Notes: generated from the sequence alone by a model not told the origin. Positions 16,562 to 32,868 are shown, counted from the first letter of the stretch. The stretch: 32,868 nucleotides of DNA from a virus (IMGVR_UViG_3300025402_000044:1-32868); one strand, 5' to 3'. Made by a program: numbers and translations.

Positions 16562-19500
16562 ATGGCTGGGTTATCAACTAATTTTAATGTTGCACCATTC
16601 TATGATGATTATGATCCAAATAATCAATACTATAGAATACTTTTCCGTCCAGGAACAGCTGTCCAGGCGAGAGAGTTAACCCAGCTTCAGACTATTCTTC
16701 AGAATCAAGTTTCTAGTTTTGGTAATAGCATATACAAGGATGGTTCTGTTATTGAAGGTTGTAACTTCACAACGTATCCTAATATGCAGCAGATTAAATT
16801 TGTTGATAGCAACAGCTCTACTCTTGATTTCACCACATTGACTTTGAATTATACTGACGTTGCTTTTGATACATCTAATAACATTGTCAATGCATCAAAT
16901 TCATTCTTGCTTGTTTCTAATACATCAGGCTTAAGAGCTTCTGTATTCAGAGCATATTATGGTGCACAGTCACAGGCTCCTTATTCTAATAGAGCATATG
17001 TACAGTATCTAAACGTAGGTAACAATAGCTCTACTACATTTAGCCAAACATCAGAACAGATTGATGTTTATAGTGGCAATCAAAGCAAACAGGGTCCTTT
17101 GAACCCAGCTAATAAGTTAGGTGTAATCTATACACTTACTTCTAACTCTACTGTTAATGCTCTTGCTACAGGTTATGGAATGCATGTTGGTCCTGGTATC
17201 ATTTACCAGAAAGGATTCTTTATTGAATCTATGCCAGACAATTTCATTATCAGCGAGCATGTTTCAAACCAAAATGGTATTGTTGTTGGTTTTGATACAT
17301 CAGAAGAAATCATTACTCCTTATGATGATACATCGTTATTTGATAATTCACAAGGAAGTTCTAACTATAGTGCACCAGGTGCATATAGATTGAAGTTGGT
17401 TCCAAGACCAGTATTCTATGATTCATCAAATACAGCTGTTTCTGTTCCTAACAACTTCCTCGTGATTGTTAAGTTTGATACAGGAACTGGTCAAGTAATC
17501 TTAAACAAGAGCACTCCACAGCTAAGCACATTAGGTGACACTATTGCTACTCAACAATTGGAAACAGCTGGTAATTTTATTGTAACACCATTTACTGTTA
17601 ACGTTGTTCCTTCTGCAAACAATGAAACTTTCTTGTATTCTATATCATCAGGCACTGCCTATGTTGATGGTTATAGAGTACAGACATTAGGCACAAGCAC
17701 CGTTGAAGTTCCAAGAGGTATCTTTACTAAATCAATTAACCAAGATGTGCTATCTCTTAGCCTTGGTAACTACTATATTGTAAATGAGGTTGCTGGTACA
17801 CCAGATGTACAAGGCCTTGAAGAAGTTATTCTTTATGATGCACCGAGAACTGCTCTTTCATTACCTCCTGTATTTCAACCAGCTGGTCGTCAGATTGGTA
17901 CTGCAAACATTAGAGCGTTTAAGTACTATCAGGGCACAAAAGGAACACCTGAGGCTCAATATAAAATGTATCTTTGCAATATCCAGTTAACTGGAAATCC
18001 TGCAAACATTAGAAGCCTATATGCTTATTCAAGCACATATGGTGCCTTCTATGCTGATATCGTTCTTGATTCGTTGAAGGGTATTGCTATTATTCAAGAA
18101 CCAACACTTAGCCTTCCAATATACGATACAGGTGTTAGTGGTTTAGATTCCTTGGTAAGCAATGCTGGAATGAATAATACATCATTCTATTATAGACCCA
18201 CTCTTCAAGCATCTCTTACTCAGACTATGACTGGTGCAACAGCAAACTTTACTGTTCCTGGTCCAGATATTTTCAGTTATGGTGATGGATTCCTTGATGA
18301 TAGTACATCATTGGATGTAAACATAACATTTGCACAAGATACTTTTACACAACCTCTAATGACTGATGGTGCAATTCCTTCATCAACTCTTATTACAGAT
18401 GGTACGGTATTAAACAATACAATTATTAATAACGGTGTAGTGCTTAACAGCACGTTAATTACAAATGGTAGTATTCCAGAAAATGTTCTTATATCTAATG
18501 CTACGATTACAAGCTACTCATTAGTTAACAATGCTGTTATTAATGCTGGTGCAACTGGTGTAATCACTGCTAATGCTGCTGTCCTAACTGGTACCTTCAC
18601 TACAACTGGTACAATTTCTGGAAATACCATTAATAGTGCCAGAGAATTTTTAGATGATATTCCAACAGCTGAAGTTTCAGCAGGTTATCACGTTATTGTT
18701 GCAAATACAACAGGTGCTACATCTTATAATAAAATTACTAGAGTTAATAGCAGTAGATCAATAACTTTGGATTCAACACCATCTGTTACTGGACCAGCAG
18801 GAACCATTAGTGTTTCTTATGATCCAACTTGGTTGTATACAACACCAACTGTAGCTTCACAAAATCAAGGACTAAGCACATACGCAAAGAGCTTAATCGT
18901 CGCTGCTAACCCTCCTTCTTCGTCTCCTACAGTAGGAACATATGTAGTTTTATCCAACACAACTGTATCGTATGGTACTACAATCACTGGCGTTGAGACT
19001 TTCACACCTGGTGCAAGTACAGCTAATGGCTTTGCCATTCATCTAGCAAACAATGCTAGTAAAAATATCGTAGGTTATTCCACTTCATACTCTGCATGGA
19101 ATATTAATCTCGTACAAGACCCAAGAGTTATTACAAGTGTGACACCATTTACATCTGGGTTGTCAGCAGGCCAGACAATTCTAATTTCTAATACCTCTTC
19201 TTCGTATTTTAATGATACAATCTCTTCAGTTGTCAACTCAACAGCATTGATTCTTACCACAGCTTCACCAGTTTATGGTGCTAGCCTTTCTGCTTCAATC
19301 AATGGTAATACAGTTGTTACTAGCCCAACTTACTTTACTCAAAACTTCCAGCAAGGTAGTTCAATAATACTTTCTAATACAACTGGTGGGTTCTCTTACA
19401 ATATTGTAAAGAGTGTCCCTTCTCCTAACTCTATTATTCTTACTGCTCCTTCTACAGTCAGTGGTAATGGTAATATCTCAGTAGGTATTAATGGAAGTAC

Positions 19501-21187
19501 TTTGACTAGCCCATCATCCTTTACCAGCACATTGGTTCAAGGTGAAGTTGTAACAGTAGCTAATAGCACTGGTGGCGTTTCTTATAGTACCATTAGTACA
19601 ATTAATAGTAGCAATTCAGTAACATTTACAACTCCACCTTCTATAAGTGGAAGCAATGGTACGATTGTATTGAAGGCTTCTTCTACAACATTGACTAGTC
19701 CAACATCATTTACTGGTTCACCAAACAATCTTCAGATTGGTCAACCTATTTTGGTTGCTAACTCATCTTCAGATTACTCAAAGCATTCATATAGCTATAT
19801 TGCCAGCATTAATAGTGCTAACTCAATTACACTACAAAGTGTGCCAGGAGCAGTAGGAACCAATATTAAGGTTGGAATCGTAGGACAAACAATCACTTCT
19901 CCTACGCAATTTACAACTCCACTAACAGTTGGTACAGTATTGTATGTTTCTAATACAACAGGAAGCACACCATTCCAAACCAAGGTTTCATCAATAAACT
20001 CTGCAAACTCAATTACAGTGGCAGATATACCTGCTGTGTTTGGTACTTCAATCGCTCTTACAACAGGTGGTTCATATCTAGTAAGTGCTTCTAACCCAAC
20101 ATTCTCTTCTACACTTTATCCTGGTGCTTCATTACAGCTTACAGATTCCACAGGTACATCTGTTCCTGTGACGATTAGTTCTACCAATGCTACATCGGTA
20201 AGCTTCGTAACTACACCAAATGTTCTTGGTAGTTCACTTACTGTCCAACAGTTCTTTAAGCAGGGTGAAGCAATTAACTTAACTGGTTCTGGAAACACAA
20301 TCAGTCAGGATAGCACCACATCAATGACAATGAACATCTGTACAGCTCTTGATGTTAACACATATAATGTATATGGACAAATTCCATTATTCAGATCTAA
20401 TGCCAATCCTACAGGCAAGGTAGTAAATAAAGGCCAATATGTAATCATTAATTGTGGTTCAAATCTTGGTGGTACTACTGGTCCTTGGGCTTTAGGTATC
20501 TCAGATGTGTTTGGTGTTGCTAACGTATATGTTGGTTCTACAGCAAACACAAACAATCCTGATTACGGTACATGGTTCAGTGTTGACAATGGCCAAAGAG
20601 ATGCTTTCTACGGCAATGCAAAATTGAGTCTACTTCCTTCTCACAATGGTGCATTGACAAATACTTCTGTGTTATTGGTTAAGTTAAATTGCTTCACACC
20701 TAACACAACTGCAACACAAGCTGGTTTCTACTCAGTAGATTCATATCCAATAGATGACGTTAATACAGCTAATCTATATGCAATTGCAACTGCTCAAATT
20801 CCAATCTATACATCAGTATCTGGCGTATCATATGATCTAAGAAACTTCATTGATACAAGACCTGTAATGGCTAACACAGCTGTAATTACAAACAATGTTA
20901 ACCTTGCTACTCAGGATCCAGCTTTAAACAATGGAACCAAAAATGGTTCATGGATATCAAGTGGGTATAACATCATCCCTGACCCAGATAGTAAGTTTAA
21001 CTATAGTGCAACATATTACCTACCTAGATTTGATAATTTAATTCTTACAAGTGGTTCACAATTTATTGCTAGAATGGGTGCTTCAGCAGAACATCCACAG
21101 CCACCTACCCTAAATAAAACAGGATTAAATCTAGCTCAGATATACGTACCACCATATCCTTCTCTAACATTCTCAGAAGCACAGTAA
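16562..21187 (+). CDS. Large DUF4815-like virion structural protein with internal repeats
   Basis: The 1541-residue N-terminus (FNVAPFYDDYDPNNQYYRILFRPGTAVQARELTQLQTILQ, then FGNSIYKDGSVIEG) is the signature of DUF4815-type virion proteins of marine T4-like phages. The middle part up to about 595 is beta-rich. Residues 601-666 are six consecutive 11-residue repeats, and residues about 855-1240 are six copies of a roughly 62-residue beta module. The C-terminal part (about 1250-1541) returns to family-like sequence ending YYLPRFDNLIL...MGASAEHPQPP and YVPPYPSLTFSEAQ. In relatives the chain normally continues with the sequence found in the next gene. A peripheral baseplate or fibre-base role is likely. 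AGGA 8 nt upstream supports the ATG. Confidence 0.78.
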   Translation: MAGLSTNFNVAPFYDDYDPNNQYYRILFRPGTAVQARELTQLQTILQNQVSSFGNSIYKDGSVIEGCNFTTYPNMQQIKFVDSNSSTLDFTTLTLNYTDVAFDTSNNIVNASNSFLLVSNTSGLRASVFRAYYGAQSQAPYSNRAYVQYLNVGNNSSTTFSQTSEQIDVYSGNQSKQGPLNPANKLGVIYTLTSNSTVNALATGYGMHVGPGIIYQKGFFIESMPDNFIISEHVSNQNGIVVGFDTSEEIITPYDDTSLFDNSQGSSNYSAPGAYRLKLVPRPVFYDSSNTAVSVPNNFLVIVKFDTGTGQVILNKSTPQLSTLGDTIATQQLETAGNFIVTPFTVNVVPSANNETFLYSISSGTAYVDGYRVQTLGTSTVEVPRGIFTKSINQDVLSLSLGNYYIVNEVAGTPDVQGLEEVILYDAPRTALSLPPVFQPAGRQIGTANIRAFKYYQGTKGTPEAQYKMYLCNIQLTGNPANIRSLYAYSSTYGAFYADIVLDSLKGIAIIQEPTLSLPIYDTGVSGLDSLVSNAGMNNTSFYYRPTLQASLTQTMTGATANFTVPGPDIFSYGDGFLDDSTSLDVNITFAQDTFTQPLMTDGAIPSSTLITDGTVLNNTIINNGVVLNSTLITNGSIPENVLISNATITSYSLVNNAVINAGATGVITANAAVLTGTFTTTGTISGNTINSAREFLDDIPTAEVSAGYHVIVANTTGATSYNKITRVNSSRSITLDSTPSVTGPAGTISVSYDPTWLYTTPTVASQNQGLSTYAKSLIVAANPPSSSPTVGTYVVLSNTTVSYGTTITGVETFTPGASTANGFAIHLANNASKNIVGYSTSYSAWNINLVQDPRVITSVTPFTSGLSAGQTILISNTSSSYFNDTISSVVNSTALILTTASPVYGASLSASINGNTVVTSPTYFTQNFQQGSSIILSNTTGGFSYNIVKSVPSPNSIILTAPSTVSGNGNISVGINGSTLTSPSSFTSTLVQGEVVTVANSTGGVSYSTISTINSSNSVTFTTPPSISGSNGTIVLKASSTTLTSPTSFTGSPNNLQIGQPILVANSSSDYSKHSYSYIASINSANSITLQSVPGAVGTNIKVGIVGQTITSPTQFTTPLTVGTVLYVSNTTGSTPFQTKVSSINSANSITVADIPAVFGTSIALTTGGSYLVSASNPTFSSTLYPGASLQLTDSTGTSVPVTISSTNATSVSFVTTPNVLGSSLTVQQFFKQGEAINLTGSGNTISQDSTTSMTMNICTALDVNTYNVYGQIPLFRSNANPTGKVVNKGQYVIINCGSNLGGTTGPWALGISDVFGVANVYVGSTANTNNPDYGTWFSVDNGQRDAFYGNAKLSLLPSHNGALTNTSVLLVKLNCFTPNTTATQAGFYSVDSYPIDDVNTANLYAIATAQIPIYTSVSGVSYDLRNFIDTRPVMANTAVITNNVNLATQDPALNNGTKNGSWISSGYNIIPDPDSKFNYSATYYLPRFDNLILTSGSQFIARMGASAEHPQPPTLNKTGLNLAQIYVPPYPSLTFSEAQ
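18362..18559 (+). repeat. Six in-register 11-residue repeats in the DUF4815-like protein
   Basis: Residues 601-666 read as TDGAIPSSTLI, TDGTVLNNTII, NNGVVLNSTLI, TNGSIPENVLI, SNATITSYSLV, NNAVINAGATG. Each repeat has two polar residues, a Gly or Ala, a hydrophobic pair and a final hydrophobic pair. This periodicity suits a beta-solenoid or a shaft-like beta structure. Confidence 0.8.
19130..20270 (+). repeat. Tandem beta modules of about 62 residues in the DUF4815-like protein
   Basis: A marker (TSP or T-P before F) recurs at residues 862, 922, 984, 1047, 1114 and 1179, giving periods of 60-67. Each unit reads roughly as TxTSPxxFT, GxxIxVSNTTG, I.SINSANSITL, PSVxGxxGxIxV. The copies have diverged, so the array is old rather than freshly duplicated. 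Confidence 0.78.
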
Positions 21188-21191
21188 TAAA

Positions 21192-22577
21192 ATGACATAC
21201 AACAGACCTGACCTAGCCGTTAAAGTAGATACTACCTCGCTAAGAGGCTATACTATGAAACAAATAGGTGGATTGGATTCTAGAATTTCTAGATTAGAGT
21301 ATTATAGTGTCTTGCAAGCATTGGATACAGATGCTACATCACTATCAATAGCCAATACACAAACAGGTATCCAAAGATTTAAGACTGGTATCTTTTCAGA
21401 TCCATTCAATGATTTTTCTTTGAGTGACATTAGTGATCCTGAATTTAGAATAGCAATTGATTCTTCTGCATCTATGGCACGTCCTAGATACACCACATCA
21501 TTATCAAGATACCAATTGGTTGCCTCACAAAGCAGCGGATACAGTTTAAGAGGAAGACTTGGTTTAGTTAATTACTCTGAAGAAAAGATGGAAGGCAATC
21601 CTACTGCTACTACATATAGAAATCCTGCAGAGGGTTATTACTCATTCATGGGTGATCTTGCTTTGAATCCTAACTATGATAATTATATTGATACAGTACA
21701 AGCAGCTCCTCAAAATATTACTGTTAATGAAGTAGATTCATTCCAAAACCTACTATCATCGGGTCTTGGTATCACTACACAGGATATTAGCACTGTTGCT
21801 GCTAAGCCTGTATTGACTGCGCACACATCAACTACTAACTACTGGTCTCAAACTTCTACCACTACTGTAAAAGATCTAGCAGTAACAGCTGCAGCAAACC
21901 CAGTATCACAAGATTTAGGTGACTTTGTTACAAATGTTACCAATCTTCCTTATATGAATTCAAGAACAATTGCAATTTATGCTACAGGTATGATGCCAGG
22001 TCACACTCTATATGGATTCTTTGACAAGGTACCAGTGTCACAATATTGTGCACCAGCATATGTAAATCCAATCTATGCAGATGAAAACGGAAACGTTGAT
22101 AGATCTAAGTGTGGCCAATTGGGTGCTGGTGGAGCACCAGCTCTTCTATTGAAGAATGGTAATTATGGTGATCCAATTGTTTCGAATATGTATGGTATGG
22201 CTTACTTAATATTTAATTTGCCTGCAGGTATGTTTAGAACAGGTGAAAGATCTTTTGTTCTTACTAACGTACAAGATTTGGCTGATACTGGTGGTATTCT
22301 TACTTCAGCAACACAGACCTATACAGCATCTGCACAATCAATTACTAGACAAAGTGATTCACTATCAATCATTCAACCTACATTTAACTGGAATACAACT
22401 ACATCTCAAACCACATCAAACTATACTACACATATCGATCCACCACCTCAAAGCGATGGTGGTAACGATGAACGTGGTGGTGGTAGTCGTGGTAGCGATG
22501 GCAATAGTTGCCAAGGTAGTGATCCTGGCAATGGTGGCATTGGTTGTGGCCAGGGTGATGGTGGTGGTGGTGACTAA
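21192..22577 (+). CDS. Virion structural protein; probable separated continuation of the DUF4815-like protein
   Basis: The 461-residue protein begins with YTMKQIGGLDSRISRLEYYSVLQALD (about residues 20-45), a short coiled-coil-like segment that in related marine phage proteins lies inside the single DUF4815 chain. The middle part is beta-rich (NLPYMNSRTIAIYATGMMPGHTLYGFFD). The last 45 residues are Gly/Asp/Ser-rich with two Cys and a PPP start, and look disordered. The gene starts 4 nt after tandem stops (TAATAA) of the 1541-residue gene and is in a different frame. This suggests gene fission. It probably works in the same complex. The exact role is unknown. Confidence 0.72.
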   Translation: MTYNRPDLAVKVDTTSLRGYTMKQIGGLDSRISRLEYYSVLQALDTDATSLSIANTQTGIQRFKTGIFSDPFNDFSLSDISDPEFRIAIDSSASMARPRYTTSLSRYQLVASQSSGYSLRGRLGLVNYSEEKMEGNPTATTYRNPAEGYYSFMGDLALNPNYDNYIDTVQAAPQNITVNEVDSFQNLLSSGLGITTQDISTVAAKPVLTAHTSTTNYWSQTSTTTVKDLAVTAAANPVSQDLGDFVTNVTNLPYMNSRTIAIYATGMMPGHTLYGFFDKVPVSQYCAPAYVNPIYADENGNVDRSKCGQLGAGGAPALLLKNGNYGDPIVSNMYGMAYLIFNLPAGMFRTGERSFVLTNVQDLADTGGILTSATQTYTASAQSITRQSDSLSIIQPTFNWNTTTSQTTSNYTTHIDPPPQSDGGNDERGGGSRGSDGNSCQGSDPGNGGIGCGQGDGGGGD

Positions 22578-22637
22578 TTGTAATAGATTTAATTACTATA
22601 CATATAAAAGAAGAAACAAGGTTTTAGGAATTAATTA

Positions 22638-24308
22638 ATGGCTGACGCATTATCACAAAATTTTTATTTAAACAACAATGCAGATTCACAAACTGTGGGT
22701 ATACCTGCAACCTACTTAACAAGTATCGGTGTGTTTTTTAAAGCTAAAAGTTCAGTATTAGGTGTTACGTTAGCTGTCGTTGCAACCAACAATGGTTATC
22801 CTGATACCAATCAAATTCTTGGTGGCGTACACTTGAATGCAAATCAAGTTACTGTTAGTGATGATTCATCAGCAGAGACAATCTTTACGTTTGTTAATCC
22901 ACTTGTATTGGATACTACTAAGTTATATTCCTTCTATGTTCTTCCTGACTCTAATAATCCTGATTATGCTTTGTGGATTTCTTCTGTTGGTGGTACAGAT
23001 ATTCTAACAGGAATTCCTGTTACATCACAACCTTATTCTGGAACCTTGTTTACATCTTCAAACCAACAAACATGGATTCCTATTGTTTCACAAAACTTTA
23101 AATTTAATCTTTATAGAGCAAAGTTTAATAATACTAATGCCAAGTTAGTGTTTAGAAATAATCCTACTGATTATCTTCAGTTAACTAGTTATCAAAGAGC
23201 CAATAGTTCTATTGGATTGGCAGTTGGTGACGTCGTGTATGCTGCTAATACTTCCAATACAGCTCAGATTCTAAGCAACACTAGCATCTATCCTTATGGT
23301 ACTGTTTCATCATTTAATGAACTTTCACAATTTGTTGAAATTAAGAATACTAATGGTTTGTTCAATACTACTACATATCCTATATTGAATTTCTTTAGAG
23401 TTAAGCAGTATAGTAATGCTTCCCTTCTCACACCTAACAATATGATTGCAACGGCTAACTTAATTTCAATAGTAGATCAACATTACCAATCTTTGGTTCC
23501 TAAGTTTACGTTGGTAGAACCATCAGGCACATCTACAAACATGGCTCATTATGGTACTGCTAATTCTGATGGGTATTATGCATATGATACTAATCAAACA
23601 GCTTCTTATGTGACAAATGAAACTAGATATGATTTAAACGATCATGAAAGAGTTATTCTTTCTTACTCCAATGAAGTTGCAATTGGTGGATATGGTGCAA
23701 ATGGATCTTCTACTATCGTAATCAATCTCCAGACAGCATCTCAATATGCTTCTCCTGTAATTGATCTTGGTACAAAGGCTGTCACTTTTATTGAAAACAA
23801 CATCAACAACTTGCTTGATAATGAATCAACAAGATATGGTGATGCATTAAACAAATATATCTCTCAAACAATTTCAATGGATATTACAGCAGAAGATTTC
23901 AAGGTGTATGTCACTGGATATAGACCAGCAGGAACAGACATTGTTGTCTATGGTAGATTTAAGAATAATCATGATGGTAATGTAATTCAATATAATCCAT
24001 GGTCTAAGATGGTAATGGATCCTTCTCAAGTATCCAAATTTAGTTCACCAAAGAACAAGACGGATTTTAATGACTATACTTACACGATGGCTGTAGGCAA
24101 TACTGTTGTAAATCAAACAATAGCTTACATGGATCCTAATGCAGATATTGGTTCAAATGCAACAGCAAATTGCTTGACTTACTATAATACTACAGGTGCA
24201 TCATTTGTTGGGTTTGATAACTTCCAAATTAAAATGGTATTGACTTCTTCAGACCAAATTAAAGTACCTACAGTTAAAACACTTGCAGCGATTGCATTGC
24301 TTCAATGA
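22638..24308 (+). CDS. Virion structural protein; probable third piece of the DUF4815-type complex
   Basis: The 556-residue protein starts with SQNFYLNNNADSQTVGIPATYLTSIGVFFKAKS and continues with NNGYPDTNQIL, FTFVNPLVLDTTKLYSFYVLP, YALWISSVGG, QPYSGTLFTSSNQQTWIP and FKFNLYRAKF. This is the order of a lectin-like beta module found at the C-terminal end of very large virion proteins in marine T4-like phages. The second half has a VTNETRYDLNDHERVILSYSNE segment and ends in a beta-rich domain. AGGA 10 nt upstream supports the ATG, and the 60-bp gap before it is the longest in this part of the operon. A surface-exposed baseplate or fibre-base role is inferred. Confidence 0.72.
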   Translation: MADALSQNFYLNNNADSQTVGIPATYLTSIGVFFKAKSSVLGVTLAVVATNNGYPDTNQILGGVHLNANQVTVSDDSSAETIFTFVNPLVLDTTKLYSFYVLPDSNNPDYALWISSVGGTDILTGIPVTSQPYSGTLFTSSNQQTWIPIVSQNFKFNLYRAKFNNTNAKLVFRNNPTDYLQLTSYQRANSSIGLAVGDVVYAANTSNTAQILSNTSIYPYGTVSSFNELSQFVEIKNTNGLFNTTTYPILNFFRVKQYSNASLLTPNNMIATANLISIVDQHYQSLVPKFTLVEPSGTSTNMAHYGTANSDGYYAYDTNQTASYVTNETRYDLNDHERVILSYSNEVAIGGYGANGSSTIVINLQTASQYASPVIDLGTKAVTFIENNINNLLDNESTRYGDALNKYISQTISMDITAEDFKVYVTGYRPAGTDIVVYGRFKNNHDGNVIQYNPWSKMVMDPSQVSKFSSPKNKTDFNDYTYTMAVGNTVVNQTIAYMDPNADIGSNATANCLTYYNTTGASFVGFDNFQIKMVLTSSDQIKVPTVKTLAAIALLQ

Positions 24309-24526
24309 GTGAAGGTAAATTTGTATTGAAGCAGAGTGGAATAGTAAATGTCGATCGACAGGCACACGATGTTTATTGGCTACAAAGAAAGAATGCTTCC
24401 AATGCAAATGACAAAGCAAACAATTCAGAACAAATAAATAATATGGTGGAACAGATTAATCAACTTAAACAAGATCAATCTGAAATTAAAGACCTCCTTC
24501 TAAAGTTATTGGAAAAAAATAAATGA
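24305..24526 (+). CDS. Small coiled-coil protein of 73 residues
   Basis: Function not recognised. It overlaps the genes on both sides through ATGA (24305-24308 and 24523-24526), so it is clearly a translated member of the operon. The N-terminal half is polar (KFVLKQSGIVNVDRQAHDVYWLQRK). Residues about 42-73 have heptad spacing of I/M/L (QINNMVEQINQLKQDQSEIKDLLLKLLEKNK), typical of a short oligomerising coiled coil. Its place directly before the fibre gene suggests a fibre linker, trimerisation plug or assembly helper. Confidence 0.72.
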   Translation: MSEGKFVLKQSGIVNVDRQAHDVYWLQRKNASNANDKANNSEQINNMVEQINQLKQDQSEIKDLLLKLLEKNK

Positions 24527-26208
24527 CTATACAAGTTTCGACAGTAAACACAGTATCAGATTCTTTTGGTCAATGGATTGCAAAAACCAACCAAGCTATC
24601 GTTGCTGTTAACAACTATAGTGTCACGGTTAATTCCAATACAGCGGTAGGCAATGCCTACATCACTGGAATGTATCATTCCAACTCATTATTTGCCAATA
24701 CAGTATTAACAGTAGGTGGATCCTCTGCTAACATAACTGTCAATGCATCATTTGTAACTGTACAATCATCACCTACTCAGAATGTTTTAATTTCTAGTGC
24801 TGGTATGGTAATTGGCAGCACTTCATATACACAGACATTAATGACCATTGGTAATACTTCTATCAGAGGATCCAATGTTTCATCTGATAGTCTTTATCTT
24901 ACAACACGAGCTGTTCTTGGTAACACGACTTTTTCAACCACAACTGCATATGCAGATAATTTAAACACTCGTGTTCTTACAGCATCAGGCAATGCCACGT
25001 TTGGTGATAATCAAGCAAACACATATGTTAGTAGAAATGGTATTATAATTTATTCACAACCACTAGGTACATGGATTGTTAATACAAATATTACTTCAAC
25101 TAGTATTTCTACAGTTGACGTTTATGCTAATAATATCCACGGCAATTTAATTGGTAGCTTTGCTGCTCCTCCTAATGGAGCTCCAATAGTATTCACTGCT
25201 AATATGCAATTTTCTGGTTTGTATAACTATTTTGACAATGGTCTTACATCCAATGGTAACGTAGAAGTATATGGTAATGATGGTGTAGCATCACATTACT
25301 TTGCCACAAGCTATTGGCCTACATCTTTCCCTGCATATCCAAGTGTTATGAAGAACTCCAACGCAGCATTCGTGTATCAAGCAAGTGATACAAGTGTCTG
25401 GTTATCAAGAAACATTGTTGATGGTAATTTAATTACATATGGTTCTTCTGCAGACGCACTACATTTAGGTACAAATGTTCTTCAATACTACACATATGTA
25501 AATGGTACAGCTGGTGTTGCTAACTTATTCACTAGACAGGTACCACTTAGCATTTCAACATCTTCTGGGTATATTTCTTCTAACAACTTCTCATTGGGCA
25601 ATACCACGTTCACATCTAACGTAACTGTATATGGTAGTTTGGGTGTTGCTGGTCTTACTAGTGGTGGTGTGACATTAAAAGCTAATACTACAGGAAGCTC
25701 TTATACTCTTACGCTTCCTTCAATTACAGGTACTGCTTCACAAGTATTGACTGCAGATGGTACTGGTAAGACATATTGGGCTGCTGTTCCTCTTCCAGGC
25801 AACTCGACAATTCAGCAATTGTATAGCTTGGGTGTTGGTACTCCTGCATCTGGTAATCTTGGTGAAATTAGAGCCACAAATAACATTACCGCATATTATA
25901 GCTCTGATGCAAGATTAAAAACAAACGTCACAAACATTGAACATGCGTTAGACAAAGTAATGTTCTTGAATGGCGTAGAGTTTGATTGGTCAGATCAATA
26001 CATTGAAGAGTGTGGTGGTGAAGATGGTTACTTTGTAAGAAAGCACGATGTTGGTGTTATTGCTCAGGAAGTTGAAGCGATCCTTCCAGAGATCGTTGCT
26101 ACGCGTGATGATGGCTTCAAAGCTGTCAAGTATGATAGATTGGTTTCATTGTTAATCGAAGCTATCAAAGAGTTGAAGCAAGAAGTTGACGAATTAAAGA
26201 AGAAGTAA
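24523..26208 (+). CDS. Tail fibre protein with C-terminal S74 self-cleaving chaperone domain
   Basis: The 561-residue protein is Asn/Thr/Ser-rich and beta-repetitive over residues 1-440, with recurring GNTTF, SNVTVYG and GNAT motifs typical of trimeric fibre shafts and tips. The last 102 residues are a Peptidase_S74 (intramolecular chaperone of endosialidase) domain. S460-S461-D462-A-R-L-K466 marks the cleavage region, followed by IEHALDKVMFLNGVEFDW, VGVIAQEVEAILPEIV, VKYDRLVSLLIEAIKELKQEVDELKK. This domain trimerises, folds the shaft and is then released by autocleavage at the conserved Ser. The final coiled coil is standard for the family. Host-receptor binding is inferred. Confidence 0.87.
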   Translation: MTIQVSTVNTVSDSFGQWIAKTNQAIVAVNNYSVTVNSNTAVGNAYITGMYHSNSLFANTVLTVGGSSANITVNASFVTVQSSPTQNVLISSAGMVIGSTSYTQTLMTIGNTSIRGSNVSSDSLYLTTRAVLGNTTFSTTTAYADNLNTRVLTASGNATFGDNQANTYVSRNGIIIYSQPLGTWIVNTNITSTSISTVDVYANNIHGNLIGSFAAPPNGAPIVFTANMQFSGLYNYFDNGLTSNGNVEVYGNDGVASHYFATSYWPTSFPAYPSVMKNSNAAFVYQASDTSVWLSRNIVDGNLITYGSSADALHLGTNVLQYYTYVNGTAGVANLFTRQVPLSISTSSGYISSNNFSLGNTTFTSNVTVYGSLGVAGLTSGGVTLKANTTGSSYTLTLPSITGTASQVLTADGTGKTYWAAVPLPGNSTIQQLYSLGVGTPASGNLGEIRATNNITAYYSSDARLKTNVTNIEHALDKVMFLNGVEFDWSDQYIEECGGEDGYFVRKHDVGVIAQEVEAILPEIVATRDDGFKAVKYDRLVSLLIEAIKELKQEVDELKKK

Positions 26209-26209
26209 A

Positions 26210-26542
26210 ATGTCCGCTATTACAAACCTTACAATTGACCAGGGTTCTGATTTTATTTACTTTGTTCATGTAGTAAATTCATCTGGTAATACTATTAATC
26301 TTTCTTCTTACACTGCTAACTCGCAGATTAGACCTTCATATTCATCTAATGTATTTTACTCTGCAGTACTAGACATGACTAGCTCAGCAAATGGACAAAT
26401 AGTGATGATAGTGAATTCACACACATCATCACTATTAACAAATCCAAGATACGTTTATGATTTGGAGTTAACAAGCAATACAGGAATTGTTTCCAAATTG
26501 CTTAGTGGCTTTGTCACTGTCAACCCAAGTGTAACTCGTTAA
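26210..26542 (+). CDS. Small beta-sandwich virion protein
   Basis: The 110-residue protein has the order TIDQGSDFIYFVHVVNSSGNTINLSSYTANSQIRPSYSS, then FYSAVLDMTSSANGQIVMIVNSHTSSLL, then RYVYDLELTSNTGIVSKLLSGFVTVNPSVTR. This QGS...dG..iNL..Y....qIR...YDLel.....v..ll.G.v.V...VTR pattern is common in small virion proteins of marine phages and looks like an Ig-like or BppU-type beta sandwich. It follows the fibre gene by one base and would attach near the fibre. Its stop codon overlaps the stop of the opposite-strand glycosyltransferase. Confidence 0.75.
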   Translation: MSAITNLTIDQGSDFIYFVHVVNSSGNTINLSSYTANSQIRPSYSSNVFYSAVLDMTSSANGQIVMIVNSHTSSLLTNPRYVYDLELTSNTGIVSKLLSGFVTVNPSVTR

Positions 26543-29322
26543 ACTTTATATACATACGAACCTGTGTGATCGCAGAGTATGCTCGAGTCAGCATAGATCT
26601 TGAATCCTTTTTGATTAGCCTTGTGGCAGAAGTCTAGATCTTCAGAGAAGGTCTCGTTGTGATCCAAAGCTGTTCTATAGACAAATTGTGGATACCCAAT
26701 ATCAACCATGACTTGTTTCTTGATTAGAACACAACCCATACCAACAGCACCTACCTGAACAAGACCTTTATCTTTGATCTTCTCATATGGCATGTGGTTA
26801 TAACCACCCTTATCATTAGTCTCGAAGATTTCAATCACATGACGATCGTGGAACCTCTGGATGTATATTCCAGATACAACATCAACGTCGTGATTGATCA
26901 TCTTAACCAATGTGTCAGGAGCAAAAGATATATCAGAATCTATTGCAAGTAGATAGTCGTATGATCCTTTAACTATCCAATCAGCAATTAAGTTACGTAC
27001 TTGTTCCACATTGTATCCATAGAAGAATTGAAACTGTGTCTCGTATCCTTCTGGTACGATAAGGTCATAGATTGACTTAAACGTAGTTGCTTCAATGTTC
27101 TTAGCCGTTGGAATTGCTATTAGAATCTTTTTTTTTGACATAATGTTCCTTGCTACTATATCTTTAGTGCGAACCATTTCCACTTTTGGGTCTAATTGTT
27201 TTGTTGTTGAATTTACTTCTATCTTTTCCAGCTTTACACCCTTGCTAAGGACTTGTGCAGCATTCCAGTTCTGTTGTTGACTATTAACTTTATAATCGTT
27301 TAGTGGATTTTTATCATTGTAAAGCATTACAATGTCAGACACGACTGTAATCTTTTCTGGATCTGCTTGCTCTAGGATGTTATAGAACGTAGCATTGTCA
27401 CCACCCGCTTTAAACCATTTGCCATCATGATCTTTAAATACATTATTAGATATATTATTGATTAGTCCTCTACGAAATGTTCTCAAATGAGGATAAGGCA
27501 TATTCCAGTTAAACTTGTAACTGCGGTAACCTTTTGTATCTCTCACTGCTTTCGGATAAGGTTGAGCCTGAAGAGGGATATCATCTACTTCTGACCAGCA
27601 ACTACCATATGAGTAATCTGTCTTGCCTTGAGCATAAAGGTTATTGTAAAAATTAAAAATATTATTGTCGTTGATGAGAGCGTCATCACCATCAAGTAAC
27701 ATTACAATGTGATCATCACCATCTGGCTCATCCACAGATATAATCCTTAGCATGCTAATTTGATTATACACAGCACCAAAGTTTTCTGGATTATGTTTTA
27801 CGGTAAATTTATCAATTAGGTGTGGATACATATACTTAATGTAATTAACAACAAGATCGAGACTAGTATCATTACTATTGTCATCAATCAAGTACATATG
27901 CCAGTTATCATAATTTTGTGATGCAACAGAATCAATACATCTTAAAATGTAGTCGAATGCGTTGTAGAATGGTGTTATAATATTAATACGTTGCTCAGAA
28001 GATACTTTGTAACTATTCCATTCTTCTGGATTGCTAAACCTACGACCAAATACTTTATGTACACGGTCATTGATATAGGATACTTTACGGAAATCCTCTA
28101 CAGGAAGATACAAACCAAGCTTCTTGTAGATATGTTGTTTCCATTGTAATGCAACAGTATCCCAGCCAGCAATGTCCTTTACAATATTGCACGCATACAT
28201 CTTTTGCTGGTGGAGATATTTGTTATTGTAGGCATCAAATACCATCTTGCCAAAATCACGAGCTTGTTTAGCTGGATCGATATTAGGAAATAGGTTGTTT
28301 GGTTCAATTGCATAATCTAGATGGTAACATGCAGACTCTATGGCAGTCTCTTCAAGTGCACCAAACCGTACAGTCAAGAGAGGTGTGTTGTAATACAACG
28401 ACTCAAGTGCCGATATACCAAACGTCTCTGGGAAAGCACCAGGAAAGATAAAGAAGCTGGCAGATTGGAACAACTCTGCAACTTGTTTCTGTGGAATAAT
28501 TCCAGTAAAAGAAACATCCAGATCTTTATATTGCTCTTGTTGCGCAAGATCTTCTAGTTCACGTTGCTGCTGATCTGGCTCTGCTGTTGAGCTAAACTTA
28601 TAATAACCACCAGCCACAACTAGCTTTGCATCAGGAAGATTCAACTTTACAAGTGGCCACACATTATTAAGTAATGGCTTCAACCCTTTTGATACAGATG
28701 CAACGTATACAAAAAGATTGGGATCTTTTTTAGTAATATCTGTTTCTTCAAAATACTTAACAATACCATTACGTGTTTGATAGATCTTCTTCTTTAGTAC
28801 TTCAAAGTTACGACGATCACCACCGTGCCAACAATTCGTGACATATGATGTATGAAAATCAGATAGTGTAAACAATTCATCAATGTAATTACTGACTAGC
28901 AACTTCTCGACAAATGGATCACCCCAAATAAATGTATCATGCATCCACAATATCTTGTGCTTGCTTGCCTCTCTTACATTATCAAACAAACTATAAGGAT
29001 ATCTGGTAGAGTTTTCTATTTGTCCTTGAAGTTCTTTTGGTACGAATGGAGTAATGCAACGAGATGAAATCATAACATCATATTGTTTTTCACATTTATC
29101 AATATGACTAATATGCTTATACTTCACACCATCATATGTACCAGGACTACAATCTGTATCAGTGCAATGGTTATATACAGATACGTCAAACCCTATCGAT
29201 ACAAGTTCTTTGGCAATCAAGCTCAATGCAGATTCGGATCCACCAAGTGCACGATTCTTAATCGTGTTACCATCATATACCAATCCAATCGAATCTATAA
29301 TAACAATAGAAGGTTTTTTCAT
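26539..29322 (-). CDS. Three-domain glycosyltransferase (GT4-like, GT2-like and a third GT-A-like domain)
   Basis: The 927-residue protein begins at the ATG 29322-29320, preceded by GGTGA with 7 nt spacing. The open frame also reaches a TTG at 29382, which is a less likely start. Counting from the TTG, residues about 21-420 are GT4-like: ALGGSESALSLIAKEL, then PETFGISALE with the E-x7-E motif. Residues about 463-740 are GT2-like: INIITPFYNAF...YLIDDNSND and LLDGDD as the DxD site. Residues about 747-947 form a further GT-A-like domain: ILIAIPTAK, AIDSDISF as DxD, and EDLDFCHKANQKGFKIYAD. No membrane segment or signal was seen. It is the only minus-strand gene among the fibre genes. Candidate targets are the neighbouring fibre proteins, other virion proteins or host surface glycans; the sequence does not decide. 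Confidence 0.85.
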   Translation of the reverse strand: MKKPSIVIIDSIGLVYDGNTIKNRALGGSESALSLIAKELVSIGFDVSVYNHCTDTDCSPGTYDGVKYKHISHIDKCEKQYDVMISSRCITPFVPKELQGQIENSTRYPYSLFDNVREASKHKILWMHDTFIWGDPFVEKLLVSNYIDELFTLSDFHTSYVTNCWHGGDRRNFEVLKKKIYQTRNGIVKYFEETDITKKDPNLFVYVASVSKGLKPLLNNVWPLVKLNLPDAKLVVAGGYYKFSSTAEPDQQQRELEDLAQQEQYKDLDVSFTGIIPQKQVAELFQSASFFIFPGAFPETFGISALESLYYNTPLLTVRFGALEETAIESACYHLDYAIEPNNLFPNIDPAKQARDFGKMVFDAYNNKYLHQQKMYACNIVKDIAGWDTVALQWKQHIYKKLGLYLPVEDFRKVSYINDRVHKVFGRRFSNPEEWNSYKVSSEQRINIITPFYNAFDYILRCIDSVASQNYDNWHMYLIDDNSNDTSLDLVVNYIKYMYPHLIDKFTVKHNPENFGAVYNQISMLRIISVDEPDGDDHIVMLLDGDDALINDNNIFNFYNNLYAQGKTDYSYGSCWSEVDDIPLQAQPYPKAVRDTKGYRSYKFNWNMPYPHLRTFRRGLINNISNNVFKDHDGKWFKAGGDNATFYNILEQADPEKITVVSDIVMLYNDKNPLNDYKVNSQQQNWNAAQVLSKGVKLEKIEVNSTTKQLDPKVEMVRTKDIVARNIMSKKKILIAIPTAKNIEATTFKSIYDLIVPEGYETQFQFFYGYNVEQVRNLIADWIVKGSYDYLLAIDSDISFAPDTLVKMINHDVDVVSGIYIQRFHDRHVIEIFETNDKGGYNHMPYEKIKDKGLVQVGAVGMGCVLIKKQVMVDIGYPQFVYRTALDHNETFSEDLDFCHKANQKGFKIYADSSILCDHTGSYVYKV

Positions 29323-29402
29323 CTCAAATTCACCATTCCAAACACATAAATAAAAACACTTGTAATCTATAATATATATCAATTCAATTAATCAGGCAAC
29401 GA
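29323..29402. promoter_or_regulatory. Divergent intergenic region between the glycosyltransferase and the collagen-like gene
   Basis: This 80-bp AT-rich gap must hold promoters for two divergent genes. On the plus strand CATAAATA at 29345-29352 matches 7 of 8 bases of the late box, and TATAATAT at 29368-29375 lies about 28 bp before the ATG at 29403. AGG at 29394-29396 is a weak ribosome binding site for that ATG. No exact TATAAATA is present on either strand, so promoter positions are uncertain. Confidence 0.35.
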
Positions 29403-31485
29403 ATGTCTTTAATAATTCAAAATCAAAATTTAATTGGCAACGGCAGCAATACTCAATTCACATTGCTAACGTCGACGGCTAACTCTGTAAATGTTATTAC
29501 AGTGGTCAATGGCCTTGTACAAACTCCTGATATAGATTATACGGTTGCTGGAAGTACGTTGACGTTTACTATTCCACCAGTTTCAACAGCAGAGATTGAA
29601 GTTAGATATTATTCAACTGATGATACTACAGGATACAAAGGTTCTGCTGGATATCAAGGTTCACAAGGATTTCAAGGATCAACAGGTGATTCTGGTTATG
29701 TAGGAAGTATGGGATATACTGGATCTAGAGGAGCTGGTTATACTGGTTCTACAGGTTTAGTAGGAGCACCAACAAGCAATCAATACATCAATGCTGATGG
29801 TGTCAATTCAATCTTTACAATGAATGTTCCTGTTACAGATCCCAACAACATATTTGTTTTTATTAACGGTATTGTACAAACACCAACAATAGATTATACA
29901 GTATCAGGAACTACTTTAACCTTTACGTTTGTTCCTTCTACCAATTCAGCAATAGAAATTAGATTCTTTGGCATTGCTCAAGGATTGACTGGTTATAGAG
30001 GATCGCTAGGTGATTCTGGTTATACTGGTTCAATGGGATCTGTTGGTTATCAAGGTAGTATAGGATTCACAGGTTCTTCAGGAACATCTGGATATACTGG
30101 TTCTATTGGTTATGCAGGAACAATAGGATATACAGGTTCATTAGGTTATACGGGTTCAGCGGGAGCAGGATATACAGGATCTGCAGGTCCTGCAGGTGCT
30201 CCTACAAGTAGTCAATCTATAACTGCAGATGGTACCAACAACTCATTCACAATGTCACAATCCGTTTCCAATCCTAACTATGTGTTGGTTACAATCAATG
30301 GCTTGTTACAAATACCTACTACAGACTATACTGTATCAGGAACAAATATAACATTTGCATTTACTCCAATTAACTCTGCAATCATAGAACTTAGATACTT
30401 TGGAGAGATTGGATCTGAAGGATATCAAGGATCTGTAGGCTTCCAAGGTTCTGCTGGTGTGGGATATATTGGTTCTTTAGGCTTTACTGGTTCTATTGGA
30501 TATACAGGTTCTAGAGGAGCTGGGTATACAGGTTCGATGGGTCCTGTAGGGGCCCCTTCTGATTATCAAGTATTTGTTGGTGATGGTGTTTCAACTTCAT
30601 TCACTATGAAGAATAGTGTTCCATTTGAAGCAGCAATCATAGTAGCTATCAATGGTCTTATTCAGATTCCAATAACTGATTATACTGTATCTGGTACTAA
30701 TGTCAACTTTAATTTTGTTCCTAATAACCTTTCTGAAATAGAGATAAGATATTTTGAAATTACCGAGGGGTTTAGAGGTTCTGTTGGTTATCAAGGCTCT
30801 GCTGGTACGCCTGGAACAGGATACTGGGGTTCAGTAGGCTATACAGGTTCGATAGGTTACACAGGCTCTGTTGGTATAGGCTTGCAAGGTCCTGTAGGAG
30901 CTCCTCAAGATAACCAAACATTTATTGGAACAGGATCTACTTCTTCATTTACAATGAACTATTCCATTGTTAATGAGAGTAACATTATTGTTACCATCAA
31001 CGGATTGGTACAGATTCCTGTAACAGACTATACTGTATCGGGAAATACACTTTCGTTTACTGTAATTCCTCCTAACAATACTAATATTGAAGTTAGATAC
31101 TTCACGATTGCTGCCGTTGGATATTCAGGATCAGTTGGTTACAAAGGTTCTGTAGGTGATCCAGGTGGTTCAACAGGTTATACTGGATCTATTGGTTTCA
31201 CAGGATCGATTGGTATTGGATTCACAGGATCTATTGGTATTGGTTATACAGGTTCTGCTGGTGTTGGTGTTCCTTATGATATGGAAACACAAACATCATC
31301 TTCCAATCAGACAGTTTTTATATTAAAGAATGTTGTGGCTCAACCAGGCAACATCTTCCTTTCTGTTAATGGATTGTTACAAACACCTATATTAGATTAC
31401 AACATTAGCAACTCAAATACTTTAACACTAACAACAGCACCTGCACTAAACTCTGTTGTTGAAGTAAGATATTTTGCTGGAACAG
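29403..31485 (+). repeat. Six copies of a beta module alternating with Gly-x-y segments
   Basis: Modules lie at about 29403-29630, 29778-29990, 30212-30420, 30560-30772, 30911-31117 and 31271-31485. Each has the core ADGxxxSFTM, then INGLxQxPxxDYTVSG, then LxFxFxPxxxxxIEIRYF. The sixth copy is the most divergent (DYNISNS for DYTVSG). Five of the six junctions to Gly-x-y end in a GAP or G-P motif before the next module. Confidence 0.85.
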
Positions 31486-32868
31486 GTTATGCTGGTTCAC
31501 AAGGATATAATGGATCTGCTGGTTTCCAGGGATCTGTTGGTGTAACAGGTAGCCAAGGATCTGTAGGATATCAAGGATCTGTTGGCTTCCAAGGTTCTGC
31601 ATCTTTTGGTGGCTATCAAGGCTCAATAGGTTTCCAAGGTTCTCAAGGTAACATTGGTAACCAAGGAACTATAGGTTTCCAAGGTAGTCAAGGAGATCAA
31701 GGTTTAGTTGGCTTCCAGGGTTCACAAGGTAATATTGGTACACAAGGTGATGTTGGCTATCAAGGATCGGCTGGGTTTGCTGGATCAATAGGTAATTTAG
31801 GTGGTACAGGTTATCAAGGTTCTGTAGGAGCTCAAGGATCTGGTGGACAAATTGGTCCAACTGGACTTCAAGGTAACATTGGTTTCCAAGGATCTTCTGG
31901 ATATAGAGGCTCTGTCGGCGCTGCTGGTGCTGGTTTCCAAGGTTCTTTAGGCTTTCAAGGTTCTATTGGTAGCGTTGGATATCAAGGTTCTTCTGGAGCT
32001 TCTGCAGCAGCTGGCTACCAAGGCTCAGTAGGTTTCCAAGGTAGTATTGGATTTCAAGGTAGTGTAGGTAATCAAGGCATATCTGGTTACCAAGGATCGC
32101 TTGGTGATACTGGATACTTAGGTTCGATTGGTTTCCAAGGATCGTTTGGTAACACTGGTTATCAAGGATCATCGGGTGCATCATCGTCTGCTGGTTATCA
32201 GGGGTCAGGTGGCTTTCAGGGTTCTGTAGGTTTCCAAGGTTCCATTGGTGCTACAGGATATCAGGGTGATGTTGGATATCAGGGTTCTGCTGGCTTCCAA
32301 GGTAGTGTTGGTGATCAAGGAAATATTGGTTACCAAGGATCACAAGGTGATATAGGATATCAGGGTGTTGTAGGTTTCCAAGGATCTGTGGGTTTTCAAG
32401 GTTCTTTTGGTTACACAGGATATCAAGGTTCTTCAGGTCAATCTGCATCAGCAGGCTACCAAGGATCTTCTGGCTTCCAAGGTTCTGCTGGCTTCCAAGG
32501 TTCATTTGGTGATACAGGGTATCAAGGTTCAGTAGGTTTCCAAGGATCTGTTGGGTTTCAGGGATCTATTGGTGGAACAGGATATCAAGGATCAGCAGGT
32601 GCAGCAGCTGCTGCGGGTTACCAAGGCTCAGTAGGATTTCAAGGAAGTGTTGGGTTCCAAGGTTCCGTTGGCTTCCAAGGTTCGTTTGGTGGAACAGGAT
32701 ATCTAGGTTCCATTGGCTTCAAGGGTAGTACAGGCTTCCAAGGTTCTGTTGGTGCTACTGGCTATCAAGGTTCAGTTGGATTTCAAGGTTCAGTTGGATT
32801 TCAAGGATCGGTAGGCTTCCAGGGTTCGTTTGGTAATACAGGATATCAAGGATCTTCTGGTGCCGCAG
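29403..32868 (+). CDS. Giant collagen-like (Gly-x-y) fibre protein with six beta modules, incomplete at the right edge
   Basis: An ATG at 29403 opens a frame that continues for at least 1155 codons to the window end. The first 690 or so residues alternate six copies of a roughly 70-residue beta module with Gly-x-y segments of 45-75 residues. From about residue 695 on, the protein is almost pure Gly-x-y, dominated by GFQGSV and GYQGSS hexapeptides, with breaks such as GASAAAG. Proline is very rare in the y and x positions. Collagen-like repeats form trimeric shafts in many phage fibres, so this is probably a long receptor-facing fibre. Many short reverse-strand reading frames in this region are by-products of the repeat. 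The C-terminal receptor-binding end lies outside the window. Confidence 0.85.
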   Translation, partial: MSLIIQNQNLIGNGSNTQFTLLTSTANSVNVITVVNGLVQTPDIDYTVAGSTLTFTIPPVSTAEIEVRYYSTDDTTGYKGSAGYQGSQGFQGSTGDSGYVGSMGYTGSRGAGYTGSTGLVGAPTSNQYINADGVNSIFTMNVPVTDPNNIFVFINGIVQTPTIDYTVSGTTLTFTFVPSTNSAIEIRFFGIAQGLTGYRGSLGDSGYTGSMGSVGYQGSIGFTGSSGTSGYTGSIGYAGTIGYTGSLGYTGSAGAGYTGSAGPAGAPTSSQSITADGTNNSFTMSQSVSNPNYVLVTINGLLQIPTTDYTVSGTNITFAFTPINSAIIELRYFGEIGSEGYQGSVGFQGSAGVGYIGSLGFTGSIGYTGSRGAGYTGSMGPVGAPSDYQVFVGDGVSTSFTMKNSVPFEAAIIVAINGLIQIPITDYTVSGTNVNFNFVPNNLSEIEIRYFEITEGFRGSVGYQGSAGTPGTGYWGSVGYTGSIGYTGSVGIGLQGPVGAPQDNQTFIGTGSTSSFTMNYSIVNESNIIVTINGLVQIPVTDYTVSGNTLSFTVIPPNNTNIEVRYFTIAAVGYSGSVGYKGSVGDPGGSTGYTGSIGFTGSIGIGFTGSIGIGYTGSAGVGVPYDMETQTSSSNQTVFILKNVVAQPGNIFLSVNGLLQTPILDYNISNSNTLTLTTAPALNSVVEVRYFAGTGYAGSQGYNGSAGFQGSVGVTGSQGSVGYQGSVGFQGSASFGGYQGSIGFQGSQGNIGNQGTIGFQGSQGDQGLVGFQGSQGNIGTQGDVGYQGSAGFAGSIGNLGGTGYQGSVGAQGSGGQIGPTGLQGNIGFQGSSGYRGSVGAAGAGFQGSLGFQGSIGSVGYQGSSGASAAAGYQGSVGFQGSIGFQGSVGNQGISGYQGSLGDTGYLGSIGFQGSFGNTGYQGSSGASSSAGYQGSGGFQGSVGFQGSIGATGYQGDVGYQGSAGFQGSVGDQGNIGYQGSQGDIGYQGVVGFQGSVGFQGSFGYTGYQGSSGQSASAGYQGSSGFQGSAGFQGSFGDTGYQGSVGFQGSVGFQGSIGGTGYQGSAGAAAAAGYQGSVGFQGSVGFQGSVGFQGSFGGTGYLGSIGFKGSTGFQGSVGATGYQGSVGFQGSVGFQGSVGFQGSFGNTGYQGSSGAA
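31486..32868 (+). repeat. Long Gly-x-y array with a hexapeptide period and regular breaks
   Basis: The array follows a G-aromatic-Q-G-S-(V/I/A/S) hexapeptide (18-bp DNA period). A landmark GYQGSSGAS/GYQGS..GAA recurs at 31977, 32157, 32418, 32580 and 32841, giving spacings of 180, 261, 162 and 261 bp. After it comes an Ala/Ser-rich break that keeps the reading frame but interrupts Gly-x-y. Confidence 0.85.

What the first reader, a model, noticed from the sequence alone, without database searches (positions are those of the whole stretch)
29403..32868. Proline-poor, aromatic/Gln-rich Gly-x-y protein of more than 1155 residues
Most phage collagens are Pro-rich; here the array is G-(F/Y)-Q-G-S-(V/I/A), nearly without Pro. 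Such a sequence may not form a stable collagen triple helix alone. A polyglycine-II-type bundle, as in the S16 gp38 adhesin, or stacking of the aromatic residues, are alternatives. The length predicts a very long fibre.
Basis: partly seen in the sequence, partly recalled or inferred. Interest (0 to 1): 0.6.

Follow-up and report, generated by a model that had tools for sequence, protein, structure and literature searches.

The report
Proline-free collagen shaft of phage tail fibre
An uncultured T4-like virus of bacteria encodes a 1,678-residue tail fibre whose long shaft follows the collagen pattern almost without proline, using alternating aromatic and glutamine/serine positions instead; it belongs to a large, so far uncultured group of such fibres and raises the testable question of how collagen can be stable without proline.

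Summary
The ORF at 29403 runs off the window with 1155 residues, and a 99.955%-identical contig (L009) completes it: 1678 aa.

The array is best read as a collagen-type triple helix, not a polyglycine-II bundle: 12 of 13 interruptions keep Gly register. In 178 related proline-poor arrays, basic residues sit at Y (1772 versus 78 at X), acidic residues prefer X, and Lys/Arg-Gly-Asp/Glu pairs are 4.5-fold enriched, as in known collagens. Aliphatic Y residues precede aromatic X 1.95-fold too often. The likelier polyglycine-II candidate is the next gene, a Gly_rich_2 protein in a slot that other phages fill with a lectin-like or Gly-rich protein.

"Most phage collagens are Pro-rich" holds for the isolates examined, not for uncultured phages: the aromatic class is common in IMG/VR and was not found among 50,697 phage records. 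New variant of a known kind (phage collagen fibre). The fold is inferred; a monomer AlphaFold run on the array was uninformative.

The parts
29346..29352 (+). ATAAATA, resembling a T4-type late promoter box, in the intergenic region before the gene
   Evidence: 12 matches in the window against 14 expected by chance, so only the intergenic position is suggestive
29403..32868 (+). tail fibre gene, 5' two thirds (1155 of 1678 codons); continues in L009:9998-15034
29412..29621 (+). beta module 1 (XD2 / T7 gp17-N-like)
29631..29765 (+). short Gly-X-Y linker 1
29766..29978 (+). beta module 2
29979..30197 (+). Gly-X-Y linker 2 (21 uninterrupted triplets)
30198..30410 (+). beta module 3
30411..30551 (+). 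Gly-X-Y linker 3
30552..30764 (+). beta module 4
30765..30899 (+). Gly-X-Y linker 4
30900..31112 (+). beta module 5; AlphaFold2 model with pLDDT 94.5
31113..31268 (+). Gly-X-Y linker 5
31269..31484 (+). beta module 6
31485..32868 (+). main proline-free Gly-X-Y array, window part (residues 695-1155; full array 695-1488)
26539..29382 (-). multidomain glycosyltransferase (GT1 + GT2), same place in L010; a neighbour in the host-recognition cluster, not part of the fibre

Best explanation
This is a trimeric tail-fibre protein of an uncultured T4-like (Kyanoviridae-related) phage. Six trimeric XD2/T7-gp17-N-type beta modules make a knotted proximal part that sets chain register and may dock other trimeric fibre or baseplate proteins. 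The 794-residue proline-free Gly-X-Y array then forms a thin collagen triple-helical shaft of roughly 230 nm, which ends in a trimeric C-terminal beta domain. The adjacent gene (Gly-rich here, lectin-like in a relative) supplies an exchangeable adhesin. In place of proline, the helix is probably held by the trimeric nodes at both ends, by length and cooperativity, and by a regular Y-to-next-X contact code in which aliphatic Y residues (V/I/A/T) face aromatic X residues and Gln faces Ser. Shown: gene architecture, array grammar, module fold (predicted) and synteny. Inferred: triple helix, trimer state, virion location, fibre length and adhesin role.
For: Pfam Collagen E=6.8e-76 with 13 stretches; PHROG matches are tail fibre and collagen-like minor tail families. 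Modules: PF03906 matches 35 of 57 homologues. The AF2 model (pLDDT 94.5) matches CBA120 TSP4 residues 185-253 (Z 10.0), T7 gp17 N-domain (Z 8.5) and T4 gp10 (Z 7.1). XD2/XD3 are described as trimer assembly motifs that bind other trimeric phage proteins (PMC8825819). One Gly register over the array, with 12 in-phase interruptions and one single-residue deletion. In 178 non-redundant Pro-poor arrays bases are Y:X 1772:78 and acids X:Y 1869:643. The pair Y-base then next-X-acid is 877 observed against 195 expected (123 arrays up, 20 down), like-charge pairs 0.29x, and same-triplet and two-triplet controls 0.55x and 0.68x. KGD/KGE are known interchain stabilisers (PMC7824840). In this array the Y before an aromatic X is V/I/T/A in 78 of 85 cases, whereas Gln (99) precedes other X residues. 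27 GFQGSV hexads have 24 DNA spellings with third positions near saturation, so the peptide pattern is kept by selection, not by fresh duplication. 53 ORFs combine the module with Gly-X-Y arrays. Locus order is conserved in L010.
Against: No structure or virion proteomics. A single-chain AF2 run on the array gave pLDDT 30 and says nothing either way; trimer prediction was not possible. Aromatic X residues are unfavourable in host-guest peptides (values from memory), so an isolated helix may melt at low temperature. The charge grammar comes from relatives; this array has almost no charged residues. The arrays share ancestry, so pair counts are not independent.
Confidence: 0.72

Rival explanations
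1. The array folds as polyglycine-II helices packed into a compact single-chain or trimeric bundle, as in S16/PP01 gp38 or snow flea antifreeze protein.
For: Gly every third residue and low Pro are compatible with polyglycine-II. The repeated G-AAAAA-G and GSASFGG breaks could be turns.
Against: Breaks keep the Gly phase (12 of 13) and runs reach 36 triplets, without the hypervariable loops that protrude in gp38 (PMC12892980). Phe/Tyr or Gln in most triplets leaves no small faces for lateral packing (inference). The class shows directional X/Y charge rules typical of collagen. phmmer against PDB sequences gave collagens; no gp38 or antifreeze protein was listed at E<=1. AF2 showed no compact fold (weak).
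Confidence: 0.07
2. The chains form a trimeric PPII bundle without the collagen superhelical twist, a collagen variant like the C1q narrow region.
For: A non-twisting trimeric PPII assembly has been reported (PMC11869133). Pro-free helices may relax their twist and a strict hexad would suit a repeating lateral contact (inference).
Against: No direct evidence; the axial Y-X' pair grammar is the one known for twisted helices.
Confidence: 0.1
3. The array is a disordered or sticky low-complexity spacer that works as an aromatic adhesive, not a defined helix.
For: Low predicted triple-helix propensity (host-guest values from memory); AF2 low confidence.
Against: Strict Gly register over 794 residues, a conserved hexad with saturated synonymous positions, and class-wide interchain-type pair rules are unexpected for a disordered spacer.
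Confidence: 0.08
4. A fresh tandem-repeat expansion or assembly artefact with no selected structure.
For: Arrays can expand by slippage; the contig ends inside the array.
Against: Two other contigs give the same sequence: L009, and L089 with 1 mismatch in 6883 bases. GFQGSV hexads are near synonymous saturation.
Confidence: 0.02

Closest known systems
Phage/prophage collagen-like tail fibres (EPclA and relatives, PMC3368898; S-CRM01 collagen proteins)
   Same: Gly-X-Y shaft between phage fibre domains, in a tail-fibre gene cluster; EPclA was shown to be a trimeric triple helix with a ~42 C transition and a dumbbell shape in EM
   Different: The gp17/XD module here is unlike PfN/PfC. Isolate collagens examined are mostly 9-30% Pro at X/Y with hardly any aromatic X, and S-CRM01 is intermediate; here 1 Pro in 794 residues and ~39% aromatic X
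T4 gp10 / CBA120 TSP4 XD2-XD3 and T7 gp17 N-terminal domain
   Same: Predicted module fold matches (Z 7-10), ~24-26% identity to TSP4 and gp17
   Different: Six copies strung along one fibre with collagen linkers; docking partners unknown
S16 / PP01 gp38 polyglycine-II adhesin
   Same: Possibly the role of the adjacent Gly_rich_2 protein (gene order fibre then tip adhesin)
   Different: The array itself lacks gp38 features; phmmer of the Gly_rich_2 neighbour found no convincing relative in the PDB
Animal fibrillar collagens and bacterial collagen-like proteins (Scl2)
   Same: Acid at X, base at Y, KGD/KGE pairs (class level)
   Different: No Pro/Hyp dependence; strict aromatic hexad

Membership tests
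Collagen triple helix repeat (Pfam PF01391) | Profile match above the gathering score over many triplets | tested here: met
   250.4 bits against a cut-off of 27.2, 13 stretches
Collagen triple helix repeat (Pfam PF01391) | Long uninterrupted Gly-X-Y register | tested here: met
   Runs up to 36 triplets; 12 of 13 breaks in phase
Collagen triple helix repeat (Pfam PF01391) | High imino acid content at X/Y | tested here: not met
   1 Pro in 794 residues; typical of collagens but not part of the Pfam definition
Collagen triple helix repeat (Pfam PF01391) | X/Y charge preference and KGD/KGE enrichment | tested here: inconclusive
   Strongly met for the class of related arrays; this array has too few charges to test
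Collagen triple helix repeat (Pfam PF01391) | Trimeric triple helix by CD, EM or structure | not testable with these tools
   Only monomer prediction available; array model pLDDT 30
Polyglycine-II bundle (S16 gp38 type) | Short Gly-rich segments separated by loops or turns | tested here: not met
   Long in-register runs
Polyglycine-II bundle (S16 gp38 type) | Packed lattice in a structure | not testable with these tools
   Single-sequence AF2 uninformative
XD2/XD3 - T7 gp17-N beta module | Sequence profile match | tested here: met
   PF03906: 66.5 bits in the whole protein; module 5 alone 26.3 bits against a cut-off of 25.2; it covers about half of the profile
XD2/XD3 - T7 gp17-N beta module | Jellyroll fold as in TSP4 XD2 | tested here: met
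   AF2 pLDDT 94.5; Z 10.0 to 7rej_A, 68 residues, rmsd 2.4
XD2/XD3 - T7 gp17-N beta module | Trimer that docks another trimeric phage protein | not testable with these tools
   Known for TSP4 and gp10 (PMC8825819); not tested here
Virion tail fibre | Present in virions | not testable with these tools
   Context only: downstream of baseplate wedge genes in a cluster like the pelagimyophage host-recognition cluster (PMC7029224)

The most novel reading that the evidence does not exclude
Uncultured aquatic phages have evolved a proline-independent collagen code, a strict Gly-aromatic-(Gln/Thr)-Gly-Ser-aliphatic hexad in which aliphatic-aromatic axial contacts between chains replace proline, giving stable shafts of more than 200 nm; in this phage six docking nodes would let one fibre carry several other fibres.
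Probability: 0.3. Interest if true: 0.75.

Novelty: new variant of a known kind. Interest (0 to 1): 0.5.

Why it matters
Collagen stability is usually explained by proline and hydroxyproline plus salt bridges. A natural class with almost no proline and, in this case, almost no charge makes the minimum requirements of the triple helix directly testable, with ready-made sequences: 178 arrays, 27 GFQGSV hexads in one protein. It would also add to collagen-material design and explain very long thin fibres of phages that are abundant in metagenomes but not found among cultured isolates here.

Tried and rejected
Polyglycine-II for the array: disfavoured by register and composition. Recent tandem expansion: rejected by synonymous saturation and three concordant contigs. 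Strain-level length variation of the array: none seen, but coverage is one near-identical population. AF2 on a 285-residue array segment: pLDDT 30, discarded. PDB hit 8zxl/9ius (fibril chain with (GAPGSQGAPGLQ)n repeats): no paper found. Cultured phages with aromatic-hexad collagens: none found; the best matches, S-CAM7 and LR756502, proved to have hardly any aromatic X residues. As a control, the same query finds 39 of the fetched loci, all of them IMG/VR contigs, at >=70% identity over >=45 aa. Late-promoter enrichment: none overall. Host: unresolved; baseplate gp6-like best matches are phages of Stenotrophomonas (41%), Caulobacter and Rhizobium.

Full report
1. Observation. The ORF starts at 29403 (ATG, with an AGG-containing upstream sequence) and is open to the window end, 1155 codons. 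The window is a 32.9 kb IMG/VR virus record that ends inside the gene. A near-identical contig, L009 (IMGVR_UViG_3300025723_000131), matches window 19406-32868 at 99.955% and continues to a stop, giving 1678 aa. A third contig, L089, agrees with L009 over 6883 bases, including the array's 3' half, with one mismatch.

2. Anatomy of the complete protein. Residues ~4-694: six beta modules of ~72 aa, 34-46% identical to module 1, separated by Gly-X-Y linkers rich in GYTGS. Residues 695-1488: the main array. Residues 1489-1678: a 'SDTPPTPGYDGLLWLDT' element, a second short Gly-X-Y stretch and a ~98-residue C-terminal beta domain that occurs at the end of other phage ORFs. Most prolines lie outside the main array; the array has one.

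3. Is the pattern real? Yes. 206 of 268 Gly fall in one phase (shuffle maximum 112), aromatic X residues alternate (1 adjacent pair against 36 expected), and 27 GFQGSV hexads are written in 24 different DNA spellings with third-position differences of 3.2 of 6, near what independent codon choice would give. The peptide pattern is therefore old and maintained by selection. Three contigs agree, so it is not an assembly artefact.

4. What are the modules? Pfam PF03906 (T7 tail fibre N-terminal domain) matches the protein at E=2.8e-18 and 35 of 57 homologous modules individually. The AlphaFold2 model of module 5 (57 sequences, pLDDT 94.5) matches the XD2 region of CBA120 TSP4 (Z 10.0), T7 gp17 (Z 8.5), cyanophage P-SCSP1u tail protein (Z 8.1) and T4 gp10 (Z 7.1). 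In TSP4 and gp10 these jellyrolls form trimers that bind other trimeric fibre or baseplate proteins (PMC8825819). Trimerisation and docking are inferred for this protein.

5. What is the array? Sequence comparison gives collagen (Pfam, PDB collagens). Twelve of 13 interruptions keep the Gly phase by a Gly-to-Ala or Gly-to-Ser change or an in-phase insertion-like break, and one removes a single residue. To find out what kind of helix this class makes, I collected 178 non-redundant proline-poor aromatic arrays from fetched loci. They follow the positional rules of collagen: basic residues at Y (1772) not X (78), acidic at X (1869) more than Y (643), Y-base followed by X-acid in the next triplet 4.5 times more often than expected, like charges avoided (0.29x), and no such excess within the triplet or two triplets on. 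KGD and KGE pairs are known to raise collagen stability by interchain salt bridges (PMC7824840). The same Y-to-next-X relation couples aliphatic Y with aromatic X (1.95x; 165 arrays up, 12 down). In the window's own array the Y before an aromatic X is V/I/T/A in 78 of 85 cases, while Gln precedes other X residues 99 times. The DNA patterns used to fetch most loci left that Y position free, so this coupling was not selected for. Caveat: the arrays are related, so counts are not independent events.

6. Polyglycine-II. gp38 of S16/PP01 has polyglycine-II helices with protruding loops (PMC12892980). The array has long in-register runs and bulky side chains and does not look like that. The gene directly after the fibre gene (overlap of 4 bases) encodes a 294-aa Gly_rich_2 protein. 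The same slot holds a double-length Gly-rich protein in L013, a concanavalin-like lectin domain in L010, and a GDSL-like hydrolase in L171. This is the gene order of a fibre followed by an exchangeable tip adhesin, as for gp37-gp38. I infer that any polyglycine-II element of this phage is there.

7. How unusual is it? Isolate phage collagens examined have about 9-31% Pro at X/Y and almost no aromatic X; S-CRM01 is intermediate with 10-11% Pro and 21% aromatic X. An aromatic-hexad query finds nothing above 61% identity over its length in 50,697 phage records, whereas the same query finds 39 of the fetched IMG/VR loci at 70% or more. 53 ORFs combine modules with Gly-X-Y arrays, and locus order (glycosyltransferase on the minus strand, fibre, putative adhesin, second collagen gene) is the same in L010. 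UniProt already names some such proteins 'Collagen triple helix repeat', so the domain is known; its proline-free, aromatic-hexad nature has not, as far as I could find in the papers searched, been described.

8. Mechanism and confidence. Most likely a trimeric tail fibre with a knotted proximal part and a ~230 nm triple-helical shaft (0.286 nm per residue, textbook value), held at both ends by trimeric beta domains, carrying or next to an adhesin. Shown: architecture, grammar, predicted module fold, synteny. Inferred: trimer, triple helix, length, virion location, adhesin role. Overall 0.72. Novel variant, not a new kind.

Noticed in passing
L009:15031-15915; L010:16612-17376; L013 and L171 ORFs after the fibre gene: The gene right after the fibre gene (-4 to +2 nt) is a swappable cassette: Gly_rich_2, double Gly-rich, concanavalin-like lectin, or GDSL hydrolase.
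   Followed up: partly
L009:15952-17166: Second, 404-aa GFQGSV collagen protein two genes downstream, with the same SDTPP...LWLDT element; possibly a docking partner or a separate short fibre.
   Followed up: partly
window 26539-29382 (-): 947-aa glycosyltransferase with GT1 and GT2 domains and a third region matching phrog_1574, opposite strand, in the fibre cluster; same place and order in L010 7140-9923.
   Followed up: partly
L176, 431-triplet array: IMG/VR contig with an even longer array of GFQGAQ type: 91% Gln at Y, 0.3% Pro.
   Followed up: no
L310 (LR756501, 735 kb huge phage): Gly-Thr-Ser arrays (GTSGTSG) with neither Pro nor aromatics, another Pro-poor class with a different composition.
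   Followed up: no
window 6108-7073 and 7816-9639: The gp5-like tail lysozyme seems split over separate genes: OB domain plus phage_lysozyme2 in one, gp5 C-terminal trimerisation-like region in another.
   Followed up: no
P0002 residues 865-1467: Recurrent Gly-to-Ala break G-A-(A/S/T)-A-A-A-G about nine times in the array at irregular spacing; possibly flexible points.
   Followed up: no
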